Source of the DNA: Solirubrobacterales bacterium
Lineage (GTDB): Bacteria > Actinomycetota > Thermoleophilia > Solirubrobacterales > Solirubrobacteraceae
Direction: 5' to 3'
Length of the DNA stretch: 41,804 nucleotides
Assembly: GCA_025963935.1 (NCBI GenBank)
Contig: JAOPZV010000135.1
Location: forward strand, 1 to 41,804
Program-made: the position numbers and the translations under genes
In this document: positions 5,918 to 33,574 of the stretch, in pieces
Layout: each line of letters starts with the position of its first letter
How positions within the stretch are numbered: position 1 is the first letter of the stretch
The notes under the pieces: generated by a model
Databases searched by the model: none
Told to the model about the DNA's origin: nothing
The model's input: the letters and a program-made list of their open reading frames with translations, nothing else

Positions 5918-5957
5918 AGAGTATATTTCTCGCCAGGCAACCGTGGAGCGCACAGCC

Positions 5958-6440
5958 ATGTCCCTGAGCAGCAAAGAGATCAAGGAGATTCTGGCCATCC
6001 TCGAGGACTCGGGCTGGGATGAGGCCGAGGTGAGCGTCGGCGACGTCACGCTCTCGGTGTCCAAGGGCGCAGTCGATCGGCCCGCCCGCGGCGACACTCC
6101 AGCACCGCCACCGTCCGAGGCGTCACCGGCTCCACAGGCCGCGGCCGCCGCCGTCCCGCAGGCCGCCGCGCCGGCGCCGGACCCGCGGGCCAACGGCCAC
6201 CTCATCAGCTCTCCCAGTGTGGGGGTCTTCTGGAGAGCGCCCGAACCGGGCGCACCGCCGTTCGTCGAGGAGGGCGCCGAGGTTCAGGCGGGCCAGGCGC
6301 TTTGCATTGTCGAGATCATGAAGCTGATGCAGCAGATCACGGCCGACGTTGCCGGCATCGTCACCGCGATCCACACCGAGAACGGCGGACAGGTCGAGTT
6401 CGGCACGCCCCTGTTCAGCATCGCTCCGACATCAGCCTGA
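5958..6440 (+). CDS. accB: Biotin carboxyl carrier protein
   Basis: A 160-residue carrier protein. An N-terminal helical region (1-40) is followed by an Ala/Pro-rich flexible linker (about 46-78) and a biotinyl domain (about 80-156). The biotin-attachment motif is EIMKLM with Lys122, a normal variant of EAMKM. It carries carboxybiotin from the carboxylase to a carboxyltransferase. I take the ATG at 5958, with GGAG 9 bases upstream; an in-frame GTG at 5943 would add five residues. The biotin carboxylase follows within 5 bases. No acyl-CoA-carboxylase-type transferase (AccD/PccB) is nearby; the only transferase candidate is the PYC/OADA-type gene at 26453-27925. The symbol reflects family only, not a role in fatty-acid synthesis. 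Confidence 0.9.
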   Translation: MSLSSKEIKEILAILEDSGWDEAEVSVGDVTLSVSKGAVDRPARGDTPAPPPSEASPAPQAAAAAVPQAAAPAPDPRANGHLISSPSVGVFWRAPEPGAPPFVEEGAEVQAGQALCIVEIMKLMQQITADVAGIVTAIHTENGGQVEFGTPLFSIAPTSA

Positions 6441-6444
6441 GCCT

Positions 6445-7806
6445 GTGCGCCGCGTGCTGATCGCGAACCGCGGAGAGATCGCCGTGCGGATCGTCCGTGC
6501 CTGCTTCGACGAGTGCCTCGAGAGCGTCGTGGCGGTCTCGGCGGCGGACCGCGATTCGCTCGCCGCGGCGGCGGCCGACAAGTTCGTCGTGGTCGGTCCT
6601 GCTGCGGCGGCCGAGAGCTACCTGTCGGTCGACCGCATGCTCGCCGCCGCCAAGGCCAGCGAATGCGACGCCCTGCACCCCGGCTACGGGTTCCTCTCCG
6701 AGCGCCCCGAGCTCGCGGAGGGCTGCGAGCAGGAGGGCATCGCCTTCGTCGGGCCCCCGGCCTCGGTCATGCGCCGTTCGGGCGACAAGATGGGTGCGCG
6801 CGAGGTCGCCGCCGCAGCGGGGATCCCGATCGGCAGGGGTTCCCCCCAGGTCGAGGATCCAGACGCCGCACTGGTTGCCGCCGAGGAGATCGGGTACCCG
6901 CTGATGCTCAAGGCATCGGCCGGGGGCGGCGGTCGCGGCATGGCCGTTCTCGCGACTCCCGAGCAGCTCTCCAAGCGCTTCGAGACCGCCCGGGCGGAGG
7001 CGCTGCAGGCCTTCGGCGACGGACGCCTCTATCTGGAGCGCTACCTCGCGCGAGCACGCCATGTCGAGGTGCAGATCCTCGCCGACTCGCTGGGAAACGT
7101 CGTTCACCTGGGCGAGCGCGACTGCTCCTGTCAGCGCCGCTACCAGAAGCTCATCGAGGAGGCTCCGGCGGTGGGCCTTGACCCGGCGACCGTGCGCGAC
7201 ATTCGCGATGCCGCCGTGGTGCTGGCGCGCGAGCTCAACTACGTCGGTGCCGGCACGGTCGAGTTCCTCGTCGACCTCGAGCGCGGCGACTTCGTGTTCC
7301 TCGAGGTCAACGCGCGCGTGCAGGTCGAGCACCCGGTGACCGAGATGGTCACGGGACTGGACATCGTGCGCGAACAGCTTCGAATCGCCGCCGGCCAGCC
7401 GCTCTCGGTCACCCAGGCCGACATCGCGCTCAACGGCCACGCCGTCGAGTGCCGGGTCAACGCGGAGGACGCACGCAACGGCTTTCTGCCGTCGCCGGGC
7501 ACGCTCTCGCGCTGGGTCCCACCGGTGGCGTCGAACATCCGCGTCGACACCCACTGCCGCCCCGGCGAGGTCATCACGCCCTACTACGACTCGCTCCTGG
7601 CCAAGGTGATCGCCTGGGCACCGGACCGGCCGGCCGCGCTCGAGCTCATGCGCCGCGGCCTGGATCGCTTCCGGATCGAGGGTGTCCACAGCACGGTCCC
7701 GCTGCTCCGTGACGTTGTCGCGGAGCCGGCGTTCGCCCGTGAGCCGGTCACCACACGCTGGCTCGAGGACGAGTTCCTTGGCTCCTGGATGGACGGCGGC
7801 GGCTAG
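6445..7806 (+). CDS. accC: Biotin carboxylase
   Basis: A 453-residue ATP-grasp biotin carboxylase that forms carboxybiotin from ATP and bicarbonate. The N-terminal domain starts RRVLIANRGEIAVRIVRAC; the HPGYGFLSE motif is at about 78-86. The ATP lid glycine loop is KASAGGGGRGM (from Lys156), followed by HVEVQILAD and GERDCSCQRRYQKLIEE. The metal/catalytic segment EVNARVQVEHPVTE differs from the common MNTRLQVEHPVTE but keeps the catalytic Arg and Glu. The length equals stand-alone AccC, so no BCCP is fused. GTG at 6445 is used because translation from it gives the standard N-terminus; no clear SD is seen and the gene is probably coupled to the carrier gene 5 bases upstream. Confidence 0.93.
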   Translation: MRRVLIANRGEIAVRIVRACFDECLESVVAVSAADRDSLAAAAADKFVVVGPAAAAESYLSVDRMLAAAKASECDALHPGYGFLSERPELAEGCEQEGIAFVGPPASVMRRSGDKMGAREVAAAAGIPIGRGSPQVEDPDAALVAAEEIGYPLMLKASAGGGGRGMAVLATPEQLSKRFETARAEALQAFGDGRLYLERYLARARHVEVQILADSLGNVVHLGERDCSCQRRYQKLIEEAPAVGLDPATVRDIRDAAVVLARELNYVGAGTVEFLVDLERGDFVFLEVNARVQVEHPVTEMVTGLDIVREQLRIAAGQPLSVTQADIALNGHAVECRVNAEDARNGFLPSPGTLSRWVPPVASNIRVDTHCRPGEVITPYYDSLLAKVIAWAPDRPAALELMRRGLDRFRIEGVHSTVPLLRDVVAEPAFAREPVTTRWLEDEFLGSWMDGGG

Positions 7807-7819
7807 ACGGCAAGGGCCA

Positions 7820-7849
7820 TTGACACGCGGGCCTTCCGCCTTGTAGTCT
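7820..7849 (+). promoter_or_regulatory. Promoter of the hyuA-ligase-dehydrogenase operon
   Basis: TTGACA at 7820-7825 and TAGTCT at 7844-7849 are separated by 18 bases. This is the best sigma-70-type promoter in the window. Operator copy 3 starts 5 bases after the -10 box, so a bound repressor would block initiation. Confidence 0.65.
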
Positions 7850-7853
7850 ACCT

Positions 7854-7867
7854 ACCGTCTGTTTGAT
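7854..7867 (-). promoter_or_regulatory. Operator copy 3 of the shared element
   Basis: On the minus strand it reads ATCAAACAGACGGT followed by AGGTAGACT, almost the same as copy 7 (ACCAACCAGACGGT followed by CGGTAGACT). It lies between the -10 box and the hyuA start. Confidence 0.72.
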
Positions 7868-7899
7868 AAGACCGGGCCCGAAAGAGAGAGTTGGGAGCT

Positions 7900-9996
7900 A
7901 TGCAAGCAGCTGACGCGTCCGCGGCCAACGGGTTCGCGCTCGGGGTCGATGTCGGAGGCACCCACACGGACCTCATCCTGGCCAGTCCCGACGGCCTCGT
8001 CAAAAGCAAGGCCTTCACCACCCACGGCAACTACAGCGAGGGCATCTTCAACGCCCTCGAGATCGCCGCGTCGGAGCTGGGCCTCGGGGTCTCCGATGTA
8101 CTTCCCGGGTGCCGGGCGTTCGTCAACGGCTCGACGATCGTCACGAACGCGATCACCGAGCTACGCGGAGCGAAGGTGGGCGTGCTGATCACCCGCGGCT
8201 TCAAGGACACCTTCCGCCTCGCCGGCGGAGCGCGCCGGGTGGAGTACGACGACCACCTGCAGGTGCCGCCTCCAGACGTGGTCGAGCGCGACTGCATCGA
8301 GGAGATCACCGAGCGCGTGACCAGCGACGGCGAGAGCGTGGTCCCGCTCGACGAGCAAGAGGTCCAGGACGCCGTTCGCCGGCTGCTCGCAAAGGGCGTG
8401 GAGGCGATCGCGGTCTGTTACCTCTGGTCCTTCAGCGACCCCTCTCACGAGCGTCGTACGCGCGAGATCATCGCCGAGGAGGCGCCTGAGCTGTTCGTCA
8501 CGCTCTCCTCCGACGCGCATCCGGTCATTCGCGAGTTCCCGCGCTTCATGACGGCGGTGTTCAACTGCCTCTCCCACCGCGCGACCACGCGCTACGTGGA
8601 CGGGCTGGAGAAGCAGCTCAGCGAAGCCGGGTTCGCCGGCGCGCTGACCTTCTTCCAGGGCATCGGCGGCTCGGTCGGGGCCGAGGCGGTGCGCACGATG
8701 CCGATCAGCCTGATGGCCTCAGGGCCCGCCGGCGGCGTGATGGGAGCCCGCTACGTCGCGGAACAGCTCGGCCTCAAGAACGTGCTCGTCGGCGACATGG
8801 GCGGGACGAGCTTCGACACGGCGGTTCTCCCCAACCTCGAGCCCACGGTGGCCAAGCAGGCGACGTTCGGGCCGTTCCACACCGGCATCAACATCCTCGA
8901 CATCGTCTCTGTCGGCGCCGGCGGCGGCAGCATCGCCTGGATCGACTCGCGCGGCGTGCCCCAGGTCGGCCCCCGGAGCGCCGGATCGGAACCGGGGCCG
9001 GCGTGCTACGGCCGCGGCGGTGAGGAGCCGACCGTCACCGACGCGAACGTGATCCTGGGCCTGATCGATCCCGACAACTACCTCAAAGGCCGCTATACGC
9101 TGGACCGCGAGGCGGCGGTCAAAGCCGTGCAGACGCGCATCGGTGACCCGCTGGGATGGACGGCCGAGCACTCAGCAGCGGCCATCTACGACCTCGCTGT
9201 CATCGAGATGGCCAACGCGCTGCGGATGGTGAGCATCGAGCGCGGGCACCATCCCCGCGACTTCACGTTCTTCTCATACGGGGGCGGCCTCGGGCTGTTC
9301 GGCGTCGAGATCGCCCGTAGGCTCGGGTGCCCGCGGATCGTCGTCCCTGACAACTCCTCGGCGTTCTCGGCCTACGGCGTGCTGATCGCCGACTACGTCC
9401 GCCAGTACAACCGCACCGTCGGCTGGGTTCTCAGCGACCCGTCGCAGGCCACCCACGTCAACGCCGTCGCCGCCGAGATGATCAGCCAGGCGATCGCCGA
9501 CGCACGCGAGGAGGGAATCGAGGAGGCCGACCTGCAAATCGAGCGAAGCGGTGACTTCCGCTTCCTCGGCCAGGTCTACGAGGTCAACGTGCCGCTCCCC
9601 GGGCGTGAGCTCACGCCTGAGGACGCCCCCGCGCTGGCCGAGGACTTCCCGCGAATCTACGAGCGCAGCTACGGCGAGGGGACGGCGTGGGAGGGCTCGC
9701 CGGTGGTGATGATGAACCTGTCGATCAAGGCGACCAACCGCCGTGCAAAGCCCGCCGGGCGTCGCGCCGAGCTCACCGGCGAGAAGACGGCCCCAGAGCC
9801 AGGCTCCTACCGGGAGATCTTCCTGCCGATCGAGCGCCGCCAGGCATCGGTGCCCGTGTACGCCGAGAGCAGCCTCATTCCCGGCACCTCGATGAGCGGC
9901 CCCGCGATCCTCGATCTCGGGGACACCACGGTCTACGTCCCGGAGGGCGCCACCGCCACCCGCGATGAGCACTTCAACTTTCTGCTGAGCGTGTGA
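7900..9996 (+). CDS. hyuA: Hydantoinase A / 5-oxoprolinase N-like ATPase subunit (HyuA 1)
   Basis: A 698-residue HyuA-family protein, related to N-methylhydantoinase A, 5-oxoprolinase and the ATP-using subunits of acetone and acetophenone carboxylases. The ASKHA-type phosphate loop is DVGGTHTD (17-24); GDMGGTSFDTAV and GAGGGSIAWID come later, then GSEPGPACYGRGG and VTDANVILG. In the known carboxylases this subunit phosphorylates the ketone or bicarbonate. ATG at 7900 is preferred: a purine-rich AAAGAGAGAG (7881-7890) lies about 9 bases upstream; an in-frame TTG at 7891 is less likely. No HyuB partner is adjacent; the only one is at 28078. It is separated from accC by 93 bases holding a promoter and an operator, and from the CoA ligase by 88 bases without an evident promoter. 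Confidence 0.9.
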   Translation: MQAADASAANGFALGVDVGGTHTDLILASPDGLVKSKAFTTHGNYSEGIFNALEIAASELGLGVSDVLPGCRAFVNGSTIVTNAITELRGAKVGVLITRGFKDTFRLAGGARRVEYDDHLQVPPPDVVERDCIEEITERVTSDGESVVPLDEQEVQDAVRRLLAKGVEAIAVCYLWSFSDPSHERRTREIIAEEAPELFVTLSSDAHPVIREFPRFMTAVFNCLSHRATTRYVDGLEKQLSEAGFAGALTFFQGIGGSVGAEAVRTMPISLMASGPAGGVMGARYVAEQLGLKNVLVGDMGGTSFDTAVLPNLEPTVAKQATFGPFHTGINILDIVSVGAGGGSIAWIDSRGVPQVGPRSAGSEPGPACYGRGGEEPTVTDANVILGLIDPDNYLKGRYTLDREAAVKAVQTRIGDPLGWTAEHSAAAIYDLAVIEMANALRMVSIERGHHPRDFTFFSYGGGLGLFGVEIARRLGCPRIVVPDNSSAFSAYGVLIADYVRQYNRTVGWVLSDPSQATHVNAVAAEMISQAIADAREEGIEEADLQIERSGDFRFLGQVYEVNVPLPGRELTPEDAPALAEDFPRIYERSYGEGTAWEGSPVVMMNLSIKATNRRAKPAGRRAELTGEKTAPEPGSYREIFLPIERRQASVPVYAESSLIPGTSMSGPAILDLGDTTVYVPEGATATRDEHFNFLLSV

Positions 9997-10084
9997 GGGG
10001 CGCTGCGATGGGGATCGGCCTCAGCGCTGCCACGGCCGGCCCCGGGGTCCTCGCTTCACGCGCTCACCGTCACAGGTGGGGTTC

Positions 10085-11665
10085 GTGACCCCCTACACCC
10101 CGTTCGCGACCGTTCCCGCTCTGATCGGTGCCCGGGCCGAGGCGCTGGGCGACGCCGTGGCCGTCACCTTCGAGGGCAGCCCGTGCACGTTCGCCGACCT
10201 CGAGGACCGCGCGACGCGCGTGCACGCCTGGCTGTCGGAGATGGGCGTGCGCAAGGGCGACCGCATCGCCGTCCTGATGCGCAACTCCCTGGAGTTCCTC
10301 CATGCGTGGCTCGGCATTGCCCGCGCCGGCGCGGTGTCGGTTCCGATCAACACCGCGATGGTCGGCGACGCGCTGACTCACACGCTCGCCCACTCGGAAG
10401 CCGTCGGGATAGTCGCCGACGCCGACCTGCTCGCCGCGGTGGATGCCGCGGGCACCTTTCCCGACCTGCGCTGGCGCCTGGCGACGGGCCAGCCGACGGC
10501 GGAGGGTGTCGTGCCGTTCTCGGCCGCGGTGGCCGATGCCGCCCCCGAGCTGCCGCCCGCATCCCTGGATGCTGGGACGCCGATGTCGATCGTCTACACC
10601 TCCGGCACGACCGGGATGCCGAAGGGCGTCGTGCTGCCGCACCAGAGCTTCACCAACACCGGCGCCTACTTCGCCCACCACCTCCGCCTCGGCGCCGAGG
10701 ACCGCGTACACACGTGCCTGCCTCTGTTCCATTGCAACGCGCAGCAATGCGGCTTCATGGTCGCCATGCACCTCGGCGTGCCGATGGCGATCAACGCGAA
10801 GTTCTCGGTGAGCCGCTACTGGTCGTGGATCGCGGACTCCCAGTCGACCATCTCGAACCTGATGGGAGCCATGCTCACGCTCCTCTACAAGGTCCCCGCA
10901 AAGGACGGCGACGCCGAGAACCCCCTGCGCAAGATCGCCGGCGCGCCGATTCCCGAGCAACTCCACCGGCCGTTCGAGGCGCGCTTCGGAGTCCAGTTGA
11001 TCGAGGGCTACGGACTCACGGAGACGGGCACGATGGCGATCCTCAATCCAATCGACGACGTGAGGCCCGGCACGATCGGCGTGGCGCTCGAGCACAACGA
11101 GGTGCGCATCGTGGACGAGCGGGACGAGGACGTGCCCGCTGAGACCCCGGGGCAGATCCTCGTGCGCGGCCACATTCCCCACGCGCAGATGACCGAGTAC
11201 TTCAAGGAGCCGGAGAAGACCGCCGAGGCGATGAGCCGCGGCTGGTTCCACACCGGGGACATGGGCAAGCGCCGCGAGGATGGCTACTTCGTGTTCCTGG
11301 ACCGCATGAAGGACACCATCCGACGGCGCGGCGAGAACATCTCGTCGTTTTTGATCGAGAAGGTCGTCCTCGACCACCCGGCCGTGTTGGAATGCGCCGT
11401 ATTCGGCGTCCCCTCCGAGCTGAGCGAGGAGGACGTGAAGGTCATCGCCGTCCTGCGTCAGAACGTGACGCTCGACCCGCCGGAGCTCGTCGAGTGGTGC
11501 GCAACCCGCATGGCGGACTTCATGGTCCCGCGCTACGTCGAGTATCGCCCCAGCCTGCCGTTGACCGAGACCGGGCGCGTCCACAAGTTCCTCCTCCGTG
11601 CCGAAGGTGCGGCCAACGCCTGGGATCGAGAGCACGATCGCGACCTGGCCCGAGCACGGGGCTGA
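10085..11665 (+). CDS. AMP-dependent acyl-CoA ligase 1
   Basis: A 526-residue class I adenylate-forming enzyme, similar in layout to CaiC/FadD-like ligases, making an acyl-CoA from acid, ATP and CoA. The P-loop is YTSGTTGMPKGVVLPH (A3); GYGLTETGTM is A5, WFHTGDMG A7, and RMKDTIRRRGENIS the hinge A8. The catalytic Lys of A10 is in the TGRVHKFLL segment. The gate segment PLFHCNAQQCG resembles short/medium-chain carnitine-like ligases, but substrate choice cannot be read. I prefer the GTG at 10085, with AGGTGGGG just upstream; an in-frame GTG at 10076 is the alternative. The gene is followed by a GTG start 2 bases after its stop. Confidence 0.88.
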   Translation: MTPYTPFATVPALIGARAEALGDAVAVTFEGSPCTFADLEDRATRVHAWLSEMGVRKGDRIAVLMRNSLEFLHAWLGIARAGAVSVPINTAMVGDALTHTLAHSEAVGIVADADLLAAVDAAGTFPDLRWRLATGQPTAEGVVPFSAAVADAAPELPPASLDAGTPMSIVYTSGTTGMPKGVVLPHQSFTNTGAYFAHHLRLGAEDRVHTCLPLFHCNAQQCGFMVAMHLGVPMAINAKFSVSRYWSWIADSQSTISNLMGAMLTLLYKVPAKDGDAENPLRKIAGAPIPEQLHRPFEARFGVQLIEGYGLTETGTMAILNPIDDVRPGTIGVALEHNEVRIVDERDEDVPAETPGQILVRGHIPHAQMTEYFKEPEKTAEAMSRGWFHTGDMGKRREDGYFVFLDRMKDTIRRRGENISSFLIEKVVLDHPAVLECAVFGVPSELSEEDVKVIAVLRQNVTLDPPELVEWCATRMADFMVPRYVEYRPSLPLTETGRVHKFLLRAEGAANAWDREHDRDLARARG

Positions 11666-25750: not shown

Positions 25751-26481
25751 CCACGCTGCTACAGACCCGCGGACTGTCGGCCGGATACGGCGGCCAGCCG
25801 GTGGTGCACGAGATCGAGATCGAGGTACGCGAGGGCGAGATCGTCGCGCTGCTGGGGGCCAACGGCGCGGGCAAGACGACAACGCTGCTGACGATGGCCG
25901 GAGAGCTTCCGGTGATCGCAGGCGAGGTCCTGTTCGACGGAACGGTCACCAAGGCGCCGCTGCACCGCAGGGCACGCAAAGGCCTCGGCTACATCACCGA
26001 GGAGCGCTCCGTCTTCATGGGTCTGAGCGCCCGCGACAACCTGCGCTGCGGCGGAGTGAGCCCGGCGCAGGCGCTGGAGCTCTTCCCTGAGCTTGACCGC
26101 TGCATGGACACCCGCGGCGGCCTGCTCTCCGGCGGCGAGCAGCAGATGCTCACGCTGGCCCGCGCGATCGCCCGCAAGCCACGTCTGCTGCTCGCCGACG
26201 AGCTCTCGATGGGGCTGGCGCCGCTGATCGTCGACCGGCTCCTGAAGGCCGTCCGCGCCGCGGCCGACTCGGGCACGGCGGTCTTGATCGTCGAGCAGTA
26301 CGCCCGCAAGGCCCTCAACTACGCCGACCGCGTCTACGTGATGCGCGGCGGCCGCATCGAGATGGACCTCACGGCGGCAGAGGCGCGCGGCCGCCTTGCC
26401 GACATCGAGGCCGCTTATCTTTCGACGGCGGCGCGCACGGACAACGGGAACCTCACGCCGGCGCCCGGCGGCGCAGCTTGA
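25747..26481 (+). CDS. livF: LivF-type ABC transporter ATPase
   Basis: A 244-residue ATP-binding subunit, the second ATPase of the branched-chain-type importer. Walker A is GANGAGKTT (about 38-46), the signature LSGGEQQMLTLARAIA, Walker B LLLADELSMGLAP (Ala-Asp-Glu is usual for LivF), and the switch region IVEQYARKAL has Gln in place of the His seen in LivG, also usual for LivF. It pairs with the LivG domain fused to the permeases. ATGA overlap with the upstream gene. The last 29 bases overlap the 3' end of the convergent carboxyltransferase gene. Confidence 0.92.
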   Translation: MTTLLQTRGLSAGYGGQPVVHEIEIEVREGEIVALLGANGAGKTTTLLTMAGELPVIAGEVLFDGTVTKAPLHRRARKGLGYITEERSVFMGLSARDNLRCGGVSPAQALELFPELDRCMDTRGGLLSGGEQQMLTLARAIARKPRLLLADELSMGLAPLIVDRLLKAVRAAADSGTAVLIVEQYARKALNYADRVYVMRGGRIEMDLTAAEARGRLADIEAAYLSTAARTDNGNLTPAPGGAA

Positions 26482-27925
26482 TCGAAAGGCCCGGCTGAGA
26501 CAGCGACAGGGAGCGCGCATTCTGGGCCTCGGCGACCAGCTCGCGCACGTTCTCGACGATCAGTGAGGCCGACGTCCGGGGATCGGTGCGGATCGGCCCG
26601 GAGGCCAGCATCGCGTCGACCTCATCGGCCGCGAACAGGATCCGCAGCAGCAGCTCCTCGTCAGAGATCCCGCGACCGAAGCGCGAGCGAAGCTCACCGA
26701 TCGTCGGCTGCGGCGGCTCCCAGGCTTCGAAGTGCGGCGCACGCGCGGCGGCCAGGATCCTGTCCTTGACGTCCGGCTGCACCGGGCGCATCAGCGGCCC
26801 GTACTGCCCGAGGGTGTACTGGATGACCTCGTCCGGCACGAGCTTGTAGCGCTCGCCGCTGACGATGTTCAGGAGTGCCTGAATGCCGACGAACTGTGAG
26901 AAGGGAGTCGCCATGATCGGCTGTCCGAGCTCCTCGCGCACCCGCGGGATCTCCTCGAGCACCTCCTGCAGGCGGTCCTCCATGCCGTGCTGGGCGAGCT
27001 GGCTCTTGAGGCTGCCGGTCATTCCGCCGGGCAGCTGGTGCTCGTAGGGGCGCAGGCTGAACTCGCTCGGCACGCCCGTCTCGTAGCCCGCCTCGGCGGC
27101 GATCCGTGCGAAATGCTCGGCGACAGCCGGTAGCTCGCTGACGTCCAGGCTGTGATCGTGCCCCAGCACGGCGAGGTTGTCGACCATCGCCTCGGTTGAC
27201 GGCAGCGATGGTCCGTTGGCCATCGGCAGCGAGCAGGTGTGGAGGATGTCGATCCCGTGGCGCAGGCCCTCGAGGTAGACGCGAGTGGCCTCCCCCGTGG
27301 TGTTGTGCGAGTGCAGCTCGAGCGGCGTGTCGCCGACCGCCGCCTTGACCGCAGGGAGCAGCGTCTTCGCGCGCTCCACCGTCAGCACTCCCGGCGCGTC
27401 CTCGAGCTCGACGCTCGGGACCCCCCAGCTCGCCATTTCCCTCGCCCGATCGGCGAAGAACTCATCCGTGTGCACGTCGGTCAACCCGTACATCACGGTC
27501 GGCGCCGGCTCCGCTCCCGCTTCCTTGATGACATCCACGACCCGCTTCACGCGCGGCATGTCGTACAGGCAGTCGAACAGCCAGAAGCTGCCGATTCCGT
27601 GCCGGCTCGCGGTGTTGATCCACAGATCGACGACGGAGTCCGGCGAGAAGCCCATGATGCCCACGGAATTGGTCCTGGTCGCCGTCCGCAGCTTGTTGTT
27701 CGGCAGCCCGGCCGCGAGGAAGTCGGTGGCCGCCCACGGGTCTTCTTTGAAGGTGCGCAGCAGGACGGTGAACATGCCCGGGCCGGTGAGGTCGATCGTG
27801 CGAAAGCCCGTCTGGTCGAGGTGGGGAAGCGCCTCGGCGGCCTGGAAGGGACGCATCCGCAGTCCCCACAGGCTCTGCTGGCCGTCGCGAAGCGTCTGGT
27901 CGATGAAGTCAACGTGCACTCCCAC
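26453..27925 (-). CDS. PYC/OADA-type biotin carboxyltransferase-like protein
   Basis: A 490-residue protein with the DRE-TIM (HMGL-like) barrel plus the PYC_OADA C-terminal domain of pyruvate carboxylase, oxaloacetate decarboxylase alpha and transcarboxylase 5S. The N-terminus has DQTLRDGQQSLWGLRM (Asp9, Arg13, Asp14), then EDPWAATDFL and a metal pair in LELHSHNTTG (His205, His207). The C-terminal YEHQLPGGMTGSLKSQ and IMATPFSQFVGIQALL match PGGQxTNL and VTPSSKVVG. The carbamylated-Lys segment, usually IKDMAG, reads LEDAPG, with Glu175 for Lys. No biotinyl domain is fused, so a separate carrier (5958-6440) would be needed. Divergent from hyuB with operator copy 5 between. Its acceptor is probably not pyruvate, given the altered active site. 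Confidence 0.8.
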   Translation of the reverse strand: MGVHVDFIDQTLRDGQQSLWGLRMRPFQAAEALPHLDQTGFRTIDLTGPGMFTVLLRTFKEDPWAATDFLAAGLPNNKLRTATRTNSVGIMGFSPDSVVDLWINTASRHGIGSFWLFDCLYDMPRVKRVVDVIKEAGAEPAPTVMYGLTDVHTDEFFADRAREMASWGVPSVELEDAPGVLTVERAKTLLPAVKAAVGDTPLELHSHNTTGEATRVYLEGLRHGIDILHTCSLPMANGPSLPSTEAMVDNLAVLGHDHSLDVSELPAVAEHFARIAAEAGYETGVPSEFSLRPYEHQLPGGMTGSLKSQLAQHGMEDRLQEVLEEIPRVREELGQPIMATPFSQFVGIQALLNIVSGERYKLVPDEVIQYTLGQYGPLMRPVQPDVKDRILAAARAPHFEAWEPPQPTIGELRSRFGRGISDEELLLRILFAADEVDAMLASGPIRTDPRTSASLIVENVRELVAEAQNARSLSLSQPGLSIKLRRRAPA

Positions 27926-28077: not shown

Positions 28078-30402
28078 ATGAGTCAAGCGGTTGAGGAGCT
28101 TCAAAGCCCGAGGACGGAGATCGCGTGGGACGGTCGACTCCACAGCTACCGCTCGGCGCCCGACTGGATGGATCGCGTGTCCGAGGACCTGCTCCTCTAC
28201 GAGGAGATCGACGAGCAGCTGGATCCCGTGACCTTCGAGGTGATTCGCAACCGCCTCTGGACAATCAACATCGCGCATGGCGAGGCGATGACGCGGATCT
28301 CTGGCTCGCCGACATTCCAGGCGCTGGACTTCAACATGTGCATCATGACGGAGGCCGGCGAGATCGCCATGAACGCCCCATTCCTGCAGTACCTCGCGTC
28401 GGGCTCGCCGATGGCGATCCGCTACGTGATGGAGAACTTCAGCGGCGATCCCGGCATCCACGAGGGAGACGTCTTCATCGGCAACGATCCCTGGGTCGGC
28501 GCCGCGCACCAGATGGACGTGCTCGTCGCCCAGCCCGTGTTCGTCGACGGCAAGCTCTTCGCGTGGGTGTCCAACGCCGGCCACCAATACGACCTCGGCG
28601 GGATCGTGCCCGGCGGCTGGCCGCAGAACGCGGTCGACGTCTACAGCGACCCCACGCTGTTCAGCCCGTTCAAGCTGGTGGAGCGCGGCGTCATGCGCCG
28701 CGACCTCGAGCAGATGTACCGCCGACAGTCGCGCATGCCGGACCTCGTTGCCCTTGACCTGCGCGCGCAGCTCGCCGGCTGCCGCTTCGCGACCGAGCAG
28801 TTGCAGGAGGCCTGCCGCCAGTTCGGGGCGCCCACGGTCAAGGCGGCGATGAAGCAGATCCTCGACAACGCGCAGCGCGCGTTCGCGGAGAAGCTGCAGC
28901 GCATCCCGGACGGCACCTGGAGCGAGGTGCGCTGGTTCGATGAGCAACTGCCGGGCGACCGCGGTACCCATCGGATGCAGGTCAACGTCACGAAGGAGGC
29001 CGACCGCCTCCGTATTGACAACGTTGGCACCGACGAGCAGGCGGAGGGTCCCAACGGGTTCGTCTTCACGGGCTTCGCCGGCTCGCTGATGGGCGTCATC
29101 TCGGTCTCGATGCTGGCGGATCAGATGTTCTCGATCGGCGGCGCCGAGCGACAGATCGACTTCGACCCCACGCCCGGACTGCTCACCTGTTGTGACTATC
29201 CCGCCGCCGTCAGCGGCGGCGTCATGAACATCCTCACCCACATGAACGCGCTGATGGTCATCTTCAGCCGGATGCTCGCATGCGATCCCGAGGTCAAGGG
29301 CGATCTGATCGGCGCTGGACCGGAGTGGCCACTGCTCGTGCTCGCCGGGACCGACGACCGCGACAGCTTCTTCGGCACGGCGCTGATGGACGCCTCCGCG
29401 ATGGGCTCGGGCGCACGCGCGTTCAAGGACGGCGTCGACACGAGCGGTCCGGCGTGGAGCCCGCTGATCCGCCTGCTCAACATCGAGGCCAGCGAGCAGT
29501 GGTACCCGATCGTCTACCTGTACCGCCGCGAGCTCACCGACGGGGGCGGCGCCGGGCGCTGGCGTGGCGGCACCGGCATGGAGGAGGCCGTCACCCCCTA
29601 CCGCGCGAAGGCTATCGAGGCGATCACCAACACCGGCGGCTCCGGTGTCTCGACGCACGGCTGCATGGGCGTCTTCGGCGGCATGCCATCGCCGACCGCG
29701 CGCTACCTGCTGGCGAAGGGCACGAACGTCGAGCGCCTCTTCGCCGAGCGGATCGTGCCCCAGGACATCGACACGATCGAGGCCGAGTCGCGCGAGCTGC
29801 TGCGCGCGAAGTCAAACGGCGCGCCGTTCGTCGCCGGCGACATGCTGGAGGCTGTCTTCACCGGCGGGGGCGGCTACGGGGACCCGCTCGAGCGCGAGCC
29901 CGAGCGTGTCGCGGGCGATGTCGCGCTCGGCTACGTCTCGGCCGGGGTCGCCGCCGATCTCCACGGCGTCGTGATCGACACGGAAGGCGCGGCCGACGCC
30001 GCGCGGACGGAGGAGCTGCGCGAGCGCAAGCGCTCCGAGCGTGGCGAGTGGAAGCCCTCCTCCGGGAGGTTCGGAGAGCCGCCCGCACCGGCCTCGCCCG
30101 CCACGGGCGAGCCGCCGCGCTCCGTCCATGAGTACCTCGAGGCACGCGACGTCGAGGGCCATCGTGTGCTCGCGTGCAGCCGCTGTGACACCGTGATCGC
30201 CGACTACCGCGGTAACTACAAGCTCGGCCTACTGATGGACGAGGGCCCCCTGACGCTCGTGCCCCTCGTGATCGACCCGGCGCACTTCCTCGACGACGAG
30301 ATGGTGCTGCGCCGCTTCTGCTGCCCGGGCTGCAGGACCCAGATGGCAACCGAGCTCGTCAGGTCCGACGAGCCGCTCGTCACCGAGTTCCGCTTCGCAT
30401 GA
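28078..30402 (+). CDS. hyuB: HyuB fused to an acetone-carboxylase gamma-like zinc domain
   Basis: A 774-residue protein. Residues about 45-640 are the hydantoinase B/oxoprolinase-C family: DPVTFEVIRNRLWTINIAHG, then GDVFIGNDPWVGAAHQMD, NAGHQYDLGG, the GRWRGGTGMEEAV segment and the closing GGGGYGDPLEREPE. After an Arg/Pro-rich linker (about 650-680) comes a domain not present in hydantoinases: VLACSRCDTVIADYRGNYK (Cys700, Cys703) and FCCPGCRTQMATEL (Cys748, Cys749, Cys752), ending at 774. This resembles the small zinc-binding gamma subunit of acetone/acetophenone carboxylases. AGGAGG at 28064-28069 supports the ATG. Followed by hyuA after 42 bases. Together they suggest an ATP-dependent ketone carboxylase; the substrate is unknown. 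Confidence 0.85.
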   Translation: MSQAVEELQSPRTEIAWDGRLHSYRSAPDWMDRVSEDLLLYEEIDEQLDPVTFEVIRNRLWTINIAHGEAMTRISGSPTFQALDFNMCIMTEAGEIAMNAPFLQYLASGSPMAIRYVMENFSGDPGIHEGDVFIGNDPWVGAAHQMDVLVAQPVFVDGKLFAWVSNAGHQYDLGGIVPGGWPQNAVDVYSDPTLFSPFKLVERGVMRRDLEQMYRRQSRMPDLVALDLRAQLAGCRFATEQLQEACRQFGAPTVKAAMKQILDNAQRAFAEKLQRIPDGTWSEVRWFDEQLPGDRGTHRMQVNVTKEADRLRIDNVGTDEQAEGPNGFVFTGFAGSLMGVISVSMLADQMFSIGGAERQIDFDPTPGLLTCCDYPAAVSGGVMNILTHMNALMVIFSRMLACDPEVKGDLIGAGPEWPLLVLAGTDDRDSFFGTALMDASAMGSGARAFKDGVDTSGPAWSPLIRLLNIEASEQWYPIVYLYRRELTDGGGAGRWRGGTGMEEAVTPYRAKAIEAITNTGGSGVSTHGCMGVFGGMPSPTARYLLAKGTNVERLFAERIVPQDIDTIEAESRELLRAKSNGAPFVAGDMLEAVFTGGGGYGDPLEREPERVAGDVALGYVSAGVAADLHGVVIDTEGAADAARTEELRERKRSERGEWKPSSGRFGEPPAPASPATGEPPRSVHEYLEARDVEGHRVLACSRCDTVIADYRGNYKLGLLMDEGPLTLVPLVIDPAHFLDDEMVLRRFCCPGCRTQMATELVRSDEPLVTEFRFA

Positions 30403-30444
30403 TCGAGCTGCCGCTCGCCGAAACGCCGAGAGGAGGATGAGACG

Positions 30445-32553
30445 ATGGGCTACATAGTCGGGATCGACATCGGTGGCACGTTCACGGACTGCATCGCGAT
30501 CGACGAAACGGGGACGGTCACGATCGGCAAGGCGCCATCCACGCCGCCGGACTTCCAGACCGGGTTCGTGGACTCGATCCGCGCCACGGCCGGCAGGCTA
30601 GACATCTCGCTCGAGGAGCTCCTGAGCGATGCGAAGATCTACCACGGCTGCACGGTCGGCACGAACGCGCTCGTCGAGCGCCGCACCGCGAAAGTCGGGC
30701 TGCTCGCCACGAGCGGCCATGGCGACGCGATCATCGTGATGCAGGCCGGCGGGCGCCTCACGGGCATGGCGCCCGAGTACATCGCGCACGTGGCCTCGCA
30801 GACGAAGGATGAGCCACTCGTGCCCAAAGCCATGATCGAGGAGCTTCACGAGCGGATCACCTTCGACGGCGAGGTCCTCGTCGAGCTCAACGAGGACCGC
30901 TGCCGGGCCTCGATCCAGCGGCTGATCGACGCCGGCGCCGAGGCCTTCGCCGTTTCGCTGCTGTGGTCGATTGTCAACCCCTCCCACGAGCAGCGGGTTC
31001 AGGAGCTGATCGGCGAGCTTGCGCCTGAGGCGTTCGTCTCGATCTCCTCACGGGTGATCCCGCGCAACGGCGAGTACGAGCGCACGGTCGCCACGGTCGT
31101 CAACTCCTTGATCGGACCGGCGATGAACAGCTATCTGCGCGACCTCGAGCGCGATCTCGCGAAGCTTGGCTACAACGACACGATCCACGTGATGAGCTGC
31201 TCCGGCGGACTCATCGACGCCGCATACGCGCGCGAGCTGCCAATGCTCACGATCGGCTCGGGGCCCGTCGCCGGCCTGATCGGCGCGGGCGCGCTGACGC
31301 GCGCTGAGAGCGCCGGGCACGACGACGTGATCACCACGGACATGGGCGGGACGACCTTCGACGTCGGCGTGATCCGCGGTAGTCAGCCGCTCAGCCGCCC
31401 GACGACGCGCTACGGGCAGTACGAGTACTTCGTCCCCACGCTGGACGTGCGCTCGGTGGGAGCGGGCGGCGGCAGCATTGTGCGCTTCGACGCCGACACG
31501 GCGACGCTGCGCGTAGGCCCCCAGAGCGCAGGCTCACGCCCGGGACCGGCCGCCTACCTGCGCGGTGGGACCGCGGCGACGGTCACCGACGCCGACCTCG
31601 TGCTCGGGCATCTGAACTCCGACTACTTCCTCGGCGGCGACATCGCACTCGGGATCGATGCGGCGCGTGATGCGCTGAGCACCGCCGGCGAGCCCCTCGG
31701 CTTCGGCGCCGCGGAGACCGCGGCTGCGGCTGCCCGCATCGTCGACAGCCAGATGGCGGACGCGATACGGCTCGCCAGCGTGCAGCAGGGCTACGATCCG
31801 CGCAGCTACGTGATGTATGCCTACGGCGGGGCGGGCCCTGTCCATGCGACCGCGCTCGCCCGCGAGCTGGGCATCCGGCGCGTGGTCGTCCCGCTCAGCG
31901 ACCTCGCCTCCGGCTGGTCGGCCTTCGGCGTCGCGTCCTCAGAGGCGGTGGTCGTCGAGGAGGTGGCCAAGGCGCTCACACACCCGTTCGACCCCGATGA
32001 GATGAACGAGGGCTGGATCAGGTTGGAGGACAAGGTGCGCGCCGCGATGGCCAGCCAGGGGATCGGCGCCGAGACGCTCGAGTGGGAGCGGCTCGCCGAC
32101 ATCCGCTACAGCCAGCAGATCAACCAGGTCGCCGTGGTCGCGCCAGATGGCGACTACACGGCCGCGGTCGCGCAGGCGCTGATCGACTCCTTCGAGCAGG
32201 AGTATGAGCGGCTGTTCGGGGCCGGCAGCGGATATGCGGCGGCCGGATTCGCGCTGACGGCGATGCGCGTGCGGGCGCGCGCCACCGTGAGCGACTTCCG
32301 CATCGCTCGTCGAGACGCCACCAACGGCGCGGTCGATCATCCCCTCGCGCCCAAGGGCACGCGAGAGGTGATCTGGTACGAACGCTCGCTCACGCCGGAG
32401 CCCACGGCGATCTACGACGGCGCCGCGTTTGCGCACGGACTTCGCGTGACGGGCCCCGGGATCGTCGAGTTCCAGGACACGACGCTCGTGCTCCGCCACG
32501 GCGATCACGCCACCGTCGACGCCTTCGGAAGCGTCATCGTCGACGTCGGCTGA
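30445..32553 (+). CDS. hyuA: Hydantoinase A / acetone-carboxylase-like ATPase subunit (HyuA 2)
   Basis: A 702-residue HyuA-family protein. The phosphate loop DIGGTFTD (8-15), STVG-equivalent GCTVGTNALVERR, CSGGLIDA, TDMGGTTFDVGV, GAGGGSIVRFD and GSRPGPAAYLRGG are all present, followed by the C-terminal beta domain. It is the natural partner of the HyuB-gamma fusion 42 bases upstream, supplying the ATP-dependent activation step. GAGGAGG (30431-30437) lies 7 bases before the ATG. The family pattern agrees with HyuA 1 (7900), but sequences differ clearly (loop His versus Phe), so they are not a recent duplication. Convergent with the LLM gene at 32574; the 20-base gap has no obvious terminator. 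Confidence 0.91.
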   Translation: MGYIVGIDIGGTFTDCIAIDETGTVTIGKAPSTPPDFQTGFVDSIRATAGRLDISLEELLSDAKIYHGCTVGTNALVERRTAKVGLLATSGHGDAIIVMQAGGRLTGMAPEYIAHVASQTKDEPLVPKAMIEELHERITFDGEVLVELNEDRCRASIQRLIDAGAEAFAVSLLWSIVNPSHEQRVQELIGELAPEAFVSISSRVIPRNGEYERTVATVVNSLIGPAMNSYLRDLERDLAKLGYNDTIHVMSCSGGLIDAAYARELPMLTIGSGPVAGLIGAGALTRAESAGHDDVITTDMGGTTFDVGVIRGSQPLSRPTTRYGQYEYFVPTLDVRSVGAGGGSIVRFDADTATLRVGPQSAGSRPGPAAYLRGGTAATVTDADLVLGHLNSDYFLGGDIALGIDAARDALSTAGEPLGFGAAETAAAAARIVDSQMADAIRLASVQQGYDPRSYVMYAYGGAGPVHATALARELGIRRVVVPLSDLASGWSAFGVASSEAVVVEEVAKALTHPFDPDEMNEGWIRLEDKVRAAMASQGIGAETLEWERLADIRYSQQINQVAVVAPDGDYTAAVAQALIDSFEQEYERLFGAGSGYAAAGFALTAMRVRARATVSDFRIARRDATNGAVDHPLAPKGTREVIWYERSLTPEPTAIYDGAAFAHGLRVTGPGIVEFQDTTLVLRHGDHATVDAFGSVIVDVG

Positions 32554-32573: not shown

Positions 32574-33506
32574 CTACCCGCGGCCCTCGGCGATCGCAGG
32601 CGCGGCTGCGCTGCGCAGCGTCGCGACATGCTCCTCGACGCCATCGAGCCCACGGCGCATCGTGTCCAGCGCCACGTGCGTGGCTCCGAGATCGCGCCAC
32701 GCTTCGAGCTCGCCCGACAGCGCATCGCGGTCATCCGTCACGGCTGTGCGACCCTGGAGGCCGAGCATCGCCGGATCGCGTCCCGCTGCGACGGCCGCCG
32801 CTCGGATCCTCTCGAGCTGATCGTGCAGCCGGCGGGGATCGGTTCCCACCGGCAACCACCCGTCGCCGAGGCGCCCGACCCGCTCGAGCGCGCGCGCGTT
32901 GGTGCCTGCCGCGACCCAGATCGGGATTGGCCGCTGCACCGGGAGCGGTGCGATGCCGACGCCGTCGGCCCAGTCCCAACGCCCCTCGAACCGCACCGTC
33001 GGCTCGGTCCAGTAGCGCCTCAGCAGCGCGATCTGCTCCTCGATCCGCGCGCCGCGCTGACGGAAGTCCGATCCGAGCGAGCGCTGCTCGAGCGAGTTCC
33101 ACCCGACGCCGACGCCAAGCCTCAGCCGGCCTTCGCTGAGCAGGTCGATCTCGGCTGCCTGCTTGGCGACCAGCGCCGTCTGGCGCTGCGGCAGCACGAG
33201 CACGCCGCTGAGAAGCTCGAGCGATGGCGCGACGCCGGCGAGGAAGCCGAGCAGCACCATCAGCTCGTGGAAGCGGTCGGCGACGTCGTAGGGCTTCGCG
33301 GACGTGGCTCCGGCGGCGCGCGCGCTCGCCCCGTGATCGGCATGAACTACAGGGTCGACGCCCGTCACGTGGTCGTAGACCAGCGCGTGATCGAAGCCCA
33401 GCTCAGCCACCGCGGTCGCCCAGGCGCGGATCGCTCCCGGCTCGGGCTCGATCTCCGTGTGCGGGAACACGACGCCGAGACGCAAGCAGCCAGTGTATTC
33501 GACCAT
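32574..33506 (-). CDS. LLM-class F420-dependent oxidoreductase 2 (Rv2161c-like family)
   Basis: A luciferase-like TIM-barrel enzyme of about 310 residues. The N-terminus CLRLGVVFPHTEIEPEPGAIRAWATAVAEL, followed by DHALVYDHVTGVDP, is the pattern of the probable F420-dependent Rv2161c-type subfamily. Also present are RQTALVAKQAAEIDLLSEGR and LRLGVGVGWN (cofactor phosphate region) and IPIWVAAGTNARALERVGRLGDGWLP. It likely transfers hydride or oxygen to or from a ketone/alcohol. The start is uncertain: ATG at 33506 is used, but a TTG at 33485 would give the usual MRLGVVFP beginning; neither has a clear SD. It is the last gene of the minus-strand SDR-SnoaL-LLM unit, 68 bases after the SnoaL-like gene. 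Confidence 0.85.
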   Translation of the reverse strand: MVEYTGCLRLGVVFPHTEIEPEPGAIRAWATAVAELGFDHALVYDHVTGVDPVVHADHGASARAAGATSAKPYDVADRFHELMVLLGFLAGVAPSLELLSGVLVLPQRQTALVAKQAAEIDLLSEGRLRLGVGVGWNSLEQRSLGSDFRQRGARIEEQIALLRRYWTEPTVRFEGRWDWADGVGIAPLPVQRPIPIWVAAGTNARALERVGRLGDGWLPVGTDPRRLHDQLERIRAAAVAAGRDPAMLGLQGRTAVTDDRDALSGELEAWRDLGATHVALDTMRRGLDGVEEHVATLRSAAAPAIAEGRG

Positions 33507-33574
33507 CCCAGGGCAGCTGGCTCGGCGGAGCGGGCGCCGAAAGCGTCCCCGCCGCATCGCGAGCTCGGCGCAGC

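What the first reader, a model, noticed from the sequence alone, without database searches (positions are those of the whole stretch)
28078..32553. HyuB carrying its own acetone-carboxylase gamma-like zinc domain, next to HyuA
Known acetone and acetophenone carboxylases use separate HyuA-like, HyuB-like and small zinc-binding subunits. Here a C-terminal domain with Cys700/703 and Cys748/749/752 follows a full HyuB domain in one chain. That makes a two-gene ketone carboxylase more likely than a hydantoinase or oxoprolinase, and the architecture may be undescribed.
Basis: partly seen in the sequence, partly recalled or inferred. Interest (0 to 1): 0.8.

Follow-up and report, generated by a model that had tools for sequence, protein, structure and literature searches.

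The report
Two-gene putative ketone carboxylase, fused subunits
A soil actinobacterium carries a two-gene version of an enzyme family that either adds carbon dioxide to ketones or opens amide rings, and the small zinc subunit that known ketone carboxylases make as a separate protein is here built into the end of the catalytic subunit, an arrangement that turns out to be widespread but untested.

Summary
ORF 28078-30402 is a full HyuB domain (residues 49-603) followed by a C-terminal domain that scores above Pfam's curated cut-off for acetone carboxylase gamma (PF08882). Its closest folds are the gamma subunits of acetone and acetophenone carboxylase (Z about 10; next best 3.5). HyuA follows 42 bp later. 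Zinc ligands are Cys700, 703, 749 and 752; Cys748 is not one. The HyuB metal site and the HyuA ATP motifs are intact.

The fusion is not unique. Fused homologues occur in Actinomycetota, Alpha- and Betaproteobacteria, Rokubacteria and SAR324. Haloarchaeal relatives carry the same three parts as three adjacent genes. In trees of HyuB and HyuA these proteins lie outside the Acx, Apc and hydantoinase clades. Real acetone carboxylases in the same order underwent a separate alpha-gamma fusion.

Function is inferred. I favour ATP-dependent, biotin-independent carboxylation of a ketone-like substrate (about 0.58). For: gamma is known only from carboxylases, and some neighbourhoods (beta-oxidation genes, CoA ligases) fit. 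Against: active-site residues are a mosaic, the branch sits next to the hydrolases, and some proteobacterial contexts are not ketone-like. I found no description of the architecture in the open papers searched. New variant of a known kind.

The parts
28078..30402 (+). HyuB-gamma fusion protein, 774 aa
   Evidence: Open frame; PF02538 + PF08882; 36 aligned relatives from other loci share the architecture
28222..29886 (+). HyuB domain (residues 49-603); predicted metal ligands Asp84, His144, Asp147, His169
   Evidence: Pfam 354 bits; alignment with Acx Glu89/His150/Asp153/His175 and Apc Asp65/His123/Asp126/His148; fold matches 5l9w_A, 5m45_A, 6yra_B
30043..30147 (+). variable linker between HyuB and gamma (residues 656-690)
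   Evidence: Most replacement changes per codon against the 93% identical L003 (9 silent, 10 replacing in 35 codons)
30163..30393 (+). gamma-type domain (residues 696-772), predicted Zn site Cys700/703/749/752
   Evidence: PF08882; invariant C700, C703, K715, R745, C749, P750, C752 in 37 sequences; fold Z 10 to Apc/Acx small subunits
30445..32553 (+). HyuA, ASKHA-type ATPase subunit, 702 aa
   Evidence: PF05378, PF01968, PF19278; motifs DIGGTFTD at 8, DMGGT at 299, GSRPGP at 363, HERITFDG at 135
26453..27925 (-). Neighbour: carboxyltransferase domain protein (HMGL-like + PYC_OADA), divergent from HyuB-gamma; also beside it in L003
21471..26481 (+). Neighbour: branched-chain-amino-acid-type ABC transporter (binding protein, permeases, ATPases)
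32574..33557 (-). Neighbour: luciferase-like (LLM) monooxygenase; homologues near HyuB-gamma in L003, L004, L049 and L101

Best explanation
HyuA and HyuB-gamma form a two-gene, biotin-independent, ATP-dependent carboxylase that works like acetone carboxylase. HyuA phosphorylates a ketone-type (enolisable carbonyl) substrate and bicarbonate. The activated pair passes to the divalent-metal site in the HyuB domain, where the C-C bond forms to give a beta-keto acid for CoA activation and thiolysis. The fused gamma domain is a structural Zn module that clamps HyuB; fusing it fixes 1:1 stoichiometry. Shown: domains, fold, intact ATP and metal motifs, gene pairing, conservation. Inferred: the reaction, the substrate class and the role of gamma.
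For: Gamma is reported only in Acx and Apc and absent from every Hyd complex (PMC5214803); here it is intact in sequence and fold. A single HyuA suffices in Acx (ATP to AMP; PMC5543143). HyuA ATP motifs and the interface ERI motif and the metal ligands are present. The protein lies outside the no-gamma/CapB clade, which has 100/99 support in HyuB and 99 in HyuA. HyuB's best PDB sequence hit is Apc delta (170 bits against 139 for CapB). Real acetone carboxylases in the same order fused alpha to gamma the same way (L086). Context in the window (CoA ligases, acyl-CoA dehydrogenases, thiolase, MaoC, SDR, LLM), in M. branderi (five P450s, a 2,4'-dihydroxyacetophenone dioxygenase-family gene), R. 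opacus (SDR, A, B-gamma, SDR, CoA ligase) and haloarchaea fits ketone breakdown.
Against: No carboxylase activity is known to me for any member of this branch. The branch sits next to the hydrolases in the unrooted tree. HyuA's best PDB sequence hits are hydrolases (N-methylhydantoinase 353 bits, caprolactamase 332, Apc 325), and HyuB Gly175 and HyuA Asn220 are hydrolase-type. Neighbours in Alpha- and Betaproteobacteria are not ketone-like (class III aminotransferase, polysaccharide deacetylase family, TctC-type binding proteins). A few gamma domains have lost zinc cysteines.
Confidence: 0.58

Rival explanations
1. It is an ATP-dependent ring-opening hydrolase (lactam, imide or hydantoin type) that has kept an ancestral gamma domain as a purely structural part.
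For: HyuA is closest by PDB sequence score to N-methylhydantoinase and caprolactamase; both trees put the branch beside the hydrolases; mixed residues; putative cyclase- and amidohydrolase-type genes lie in the window; caprolactamase itself depends on bicarbonate (PMC8453981), so the two chemistries are close.
Against: Gamma is absent from all eight no-gamma HyuB rows and CapB, which form one clade that excludes this protein; gamma is kept intact across dozens of distant relatives; HyuA Tyr587 and Phe305 and HyuB Ala446 are as in the carboxylases.
Confidence: 0.3
2. A carboxylase of another substrate (lactone, ester, amide or conjugated carbonyl), or an ATP-dependent hydrolase that uses carboxyphosphate, with subclades differing in substrate.
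For: Gene neighbourhoods differ strongly between subclades; deep divergence within the branch (end branches up to 1.3).
Against: Nothing directly; no substrate is known.
Confidence: 0.1
3. The tail is a chance or unrelated zinc ribbon, or an assembly artefact.
For: The Pfam score is modest (27-30 bits).
Against: All 24 tails hit PF08882 and the fold match is specific to gamma subunits; the same fusion in dozens of independent assemblies and in an isolate's plasmid; more silent than replacing changes in the tail (17 against 9 in 84 codons).
Confidence: 0.02

Closest known systems
Acetone carboxylase AcxABC (Xanthobacter autotrophicus; PDB 5m45, 5svb, 5svc)
   Same: HyuB fold with His/Asp/His metal ligands, one HyuA-type ATPase, a gamma module with a Cys4 Zn site
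   Different: Gamma is a separate, longer subunit (168 aa); Glu89 where this protein has Asp84; separate clade
Acetophenone carboxylase Apc (Aromatoleum aromaticum; PDB 5l9w)
   Same: Best PDB sequence hit of both HyuB and tail; Asp at the fourth metal ligand; short gamma
   Different: Apc has a second ATPase (alpha'), a separate gamma gene between the two ATPase genes, and epsilon; separate clade
Caprolactamase CapAB / ATP-dependent hydantoinases (PDB 6yra, 7hk5, 9h03)
   Same: Two-gene HyuA/HyuB layout (fused A-B in N-methylhydantoinase), ATP and metal motifs, neighbouring branch
   Different: They have no gamma; the sampled ones form one clade that excludes this protein
Haloarchaeal HyuA-HyuB-'acetone carboxylase subunit gamma' (Haloterrigena, Haladaptatus, Natronosalvus plasmids)
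   Same: Same branch; HyuB 36-42% identical; same three modules adjacent
   Different: Gamma is a separate gene; uncharacterised
Fused acetone carboxylase alpha-gamma of the same order (L086-L090)
   Same: Gamma joined to the C-terminus of the HyuB-type subunit
   Different: True Acx clade (709 bits to 5m45_A plus 169 bits to 5svb_C in one chain); a separate fusion

Membership tests
Hydantoinase/ketone carboxylase superfamily (HyuA + HyuB) | Complete HyuA (ASKHA) and HyuB domains | tested here: met
Acetone carboxylase gamma family (PF08882) | Score above the curated cut-off, four Zn cysteines, gamma fold | tested here: met
Acetone carboxylase (Acx) | Three genes with separate gamma | tested here: not met
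   Gamma is fused; two genes only. Note that true Acx relatives L086-L090 are fused too, so this feature alone does not exclude Acx
Acetone carboxylase (Acx) | Falls in the Acx clade with 5m45_A; Glu89 switch residue | tested here: not met
   Outside the clade; Asp84 instead of Glu
Acetone carboxylase (Acx) | ATP- and bicarbonate-dependent acetone carboxylation | not testable with these tools
   Needs an enzyme assay
Acetophenone carboxylase (Apc) | Second ATPase subunit alpha' encoded in the same operon | tested here: not met
   Only one HyuA beside HyuB-gamma; the other HyuA of the window lies about 18 kb upstream and does not group with the Apc alpha' rows
Acetophenone carboxylase (Apc) | Falls in the Apc clade with 5l9w_A | tested here: not met
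Acetophenone carboxylase (Apc) | Epsilon subunit | not tested
   Published as poorly conserved and not always present
ATP-dependent hydantoinase/lactamase (Hyd) | No gamma module | tested here: not met
   Gamma present
ATP-dependent hydantoinase/lactamase (Hyd) | Falls in the Hyd clade with CapB | tested here: not met
   Hyd clade 100/99, window protein outside
ATP-dependent hydantoinase/lactamase (Hyd) | Ring-opening amide hydrolysis | not testable with these tools
   Needs an enzyme assay

The most novel reading that the evidence does not exclude
[quoted passage not shown] The gamma-less ATP-dependent hydantoinases and lactamases arose from within it by losing gamma, so gamma marks the switch between C-C bond formation and C-N hydrolysis.
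Probability: 0.3. Interest if true: 0.65.

Novelty: new variant of a known kind. Interest (0 to 1): 0.45.

Why it matters
Only two ketone carboxylase types have solved structures that I found, and the role of their gamma subunit is unknown. A two-gene version with gamma in the same chain fixes stoichiometry and would be simple to express and to truncate. That makes the question of what gamma does, and whether it separates carboxylases from hydrolases, directly testable. The branch is widespread, yet its members are annotated only as 'hydantoinase B/oxoprolinase family', so its chemistry may be systematically misread.

Tried and rejected
(1) That the tail is an unrelated zinc ribbon: rejected; Yippee/cereblon-type folds come next at Z 3.5 or less. 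(2) That the fusion is unique or an assembly error: rejected. (3) That it is simply Acx or Apc: rejected by trees, Asp84 and missing alpha'. (4) A conserved neighbour gene beyond HyuA that would name the substrate: none found over all loci. (5) Columns that separate carboxylases from hydrolases: sequences of this branch are a mosaic. (6) Gamma contact with HyuB in the model: coordinates and PAE are not available, so not measured; the published structures show gamma wrapped round HyuB but far from the active site. (7) Open papers on the fusion, or on haloarchaeal or Solirubrobacter acetone carboxylases: none found. (8) Direction and number of fusion and fission events: not resolved, because the trees are unrooted. 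(9) In 398 Pseudomonadota genomes drawn evenly, fused hits appeared only in the centre genome; PF08882 is a weak detector for these tails, so this is a lower bound.

Full report
CHECK OF THE OBSERVATION. Frame 28078-30402 (+) encodes 774 aa and 30445-32553 (+) 702 aa, 42 bp apart. The first has PF02538 Hydantoinase_B at 49-603 (354 bits) and PF08882 Acetone_carb_G at 696-772 (27.2 bits, cut-off 21); the second has all three HyuA domains. NCBIfam gives only distant matches: ApcD and CapB for HyuB, ApcB for the tail, CapA and ApcC for HyuA, all far below their cut-offs. PDB sequence searches give Apc delta 170 bits, CapB 139 and Acx alpha 137 for HyuB; N-methylhydantoinase 353, CapA 332, Apc 325 and Acx 281 for HyuA; and the Apc small subunit for the tail (E 1e-4).

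THE TAIL IS A GAMMA DOMAIN. An alignment of 72 gamma domains shows the C-x-x-C, N-[YWF]-K, C-P-x-C and Glu positions shared by fused tails, separate Acx and Apc gammas, and haloarchaeal gammas. In 37 fused proteins C700, C703, K715, R745, C749, P750 and C752 are invariant. A profile of 24 tails finds 5l9w_C at 1.8e-12 and Acx gamma at about 1e-4, with nothing else below 0.03; all 24 hit PF08882. The tail predicted alone (pLDDT 90) matches Acx and Apc gamma chains at Z 9.4-10.0; the next match, a Yippee domain, is at 3.5. In the full model (mean pLDDT 77, pTM 0.83, tail over 90 for the most part) Foldseek finds Apc, Acx, N-methylhydantoinase and caprolactamase for the body and Acx gamma chains next. 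Parts of the body around the metal site are of low confidence, so fine active-site geometry should not be read from the model.

CATALYTIC PARTS. Asp84, His144, Asp147 and His169 align with the metal ligands of Acx (Glu89, His150, Asp153, His175) and the Hg/Zn site of Apc (Asp65, His123, Asp126, His148); the fourth ligand is Asp as in Apc and CapB, not Glu as in Acx (ligands). HyuA keeps PHOSPHATE 1, PHOSPHATE 2 and ADENOSINE motifs and an ERI interface motif.

HOW WIDESPREAD. A scan of the genome collection gave 50 loci, nearly all fused and about 770 aa long: Solirubrobacterales, Sphingomonas, Alpha-, Beta- and Gammaproteobacteria, Rokubacteria, SAR324, Myxococcota. Of 53 fused genes examined, 36 lie after HyuA and 4 before it, as in the window; 7 have room on both sides but no HyuA within 600 bp (in L014 and L018 a HyuA lies further upstream), and 6 lie near a contig end. 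The nearest relatives are a Solirubrobacterales MAG (93%), Sphingomonas formosensis (62%) and a Mycobacterium branderi plasmid (60%); these three share the order B-gamma then A with the window. In the phylum sample PF08882 occurs in 22 of 396 genomes. There it appears as separate gamma after AcxB, separate gamma between two HyuAs (Apc), an Acx alpha-gamma fusion in the window's own family and a sister family, and the divergent fusion studied here.

SPLIT RELATIVES. Three haloarchaeal plasmids carry HyuA, HyuB and 'acetone carboxylase subunit gamma' as three adjacent genes, and their HyuBs fall in the same branch as the window's. This supports the reading that the tail does what gamma does.

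PHYLOGENY. In the careful HyuB tree (46 rows) the Apc clade (with 5l9w_A, 95/90), the Acx clade (with 5m45_A, 100/100) and the no-gamma clade (with CapB, 100/99) are separate. The window protein lies in a fourth branch with haloarchaeal split members (98/96), and deeper fused lines stand between that branch and the no-gamma clade. The HyuA tree gives the same picture with the no-gamma partners as one clade (99). So the presence of gamma changes once on the unrooted tree; loss in hydrolases or gain in the others cannot be told apart without a root. Acx-type and window-type fusions are separate, because they sit in different clades. Column analysis shows a mosaic: Tyr587 and Phe305 in HyuA and Ala446 and Trp163 in HyuB are carboxylase-like; Gly175 in HyuB and Asn220 and Glu212 in HyuA are hydrolase-like.

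CONTEXT. The window is a catabolic cluster: enoyl-CoA hydratases, MaoC, thiolase, acyl-CoA dehydrogenases, CoA ligases, SDR, LLM monooxygenases, an ABC transporter, and parts of a biotin-dependent carboxylase. M. branderi has five P450 genes, a 2,4'-dihydroxyacetophenone dioxygenase-family gene and an LLM gene near the pair. R. opacus has SDR, A, B-gamma, SDR, CoA ligase in a row. Haloarchaeal sites have thiolase, acyl-CoA dehydrogenase, 2,3-butanediol dehydrogenase and CoA ligase. No-gamma controls sit among amidase, aminotransferase and TctC-type genes, among others. Proteobacterial fused loci give no clear ketone context. Context therefore supports but does not prove a ketone substrate, and only for part of the branch.

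MECHANISM. By analogy with Acx, HyuA would use ATP to make an enol phosphate and carboxyphosphate in turn, and these would meet at the HyuB metal centre. The authors of both structures consider the Zn site structural or non-catalytic, with the role of gamma unclear. Fusion therefore most likely fixes assembly and stoichiometry.

JUDGEMENT. The interpretation as a two-gene ketone carboxylase is the best available but rests on family knowledge and context. The architecture seems undescribed in the open literature searched; subscription papers and Pfam/InterPro architecture tables could not be searched. It is a new variant of a known kind.

Noticed in passing
window 5943-11665 (+): Biotin carrier protein (EIMKLM site), biotin carboxylase, a second HyuA (7891-9996) with no HyuB beside it, and a CoA ligase lie in a row; a stand-alone PYC-type carboxyltransferase is at 26453-27925 (-). 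Biotin-dependent and HyuA-type carboxylation parts in one cluster could mean a hybrid enzyme; the BC-HyuA adjacency was not seen in any other fetched locus.
   Followed up: partly
window 7891-9996 and L081 2977-5175 (G000 contig 40): The orphan HyuA2 groups with HyuA partners of L109/L110, and the second fused HyuB-gamma of the same genome groups with their HyuBs, so the two may be partners encoded apart, or the draft genome is broken there.
   Followed up: partly
L086-L090 (G218, G261, G365, G165): True acetone carboxylase alpha and gamma fused in one chain of about 940-970 aa; some copies (L087, L090) have lost zinc cysteines.
   Followed up: partly
L105 and L083: Fused relatives whose gamma domain has lost several of the four zinc cysteines while keeping the rest of the domain, which speaks for a structural and dispensable metal.
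   Followed up: no
L004 1237-1812 (+): Sphingomonas formosensis has a stray gamma-like frame with a damaged CPxC motif upstream of its intact HyuB-gamma, perhaps a remnant of a duplicated copy.
   Followed up: no
L005, L006, L012, L042: Alphaproteobacterial HyuB-gamma genes without an adjacent HyuA, in a conserved neighbourhood with a class III aminotransferase and, in L012, a pyridine nucleotide-disulphide oxidoreductase; function unclear.
   Followed up: no
model of the tail (mc6c4f8893b03): After the gamma subunits, the next folds are Yippee/Mis18 and the cereblon imide-binding domain (one bound to hydantoin), at Z 3.0-3.5, a possible but weak distant link of gamma to imide-binding domains.
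   Followed up: no
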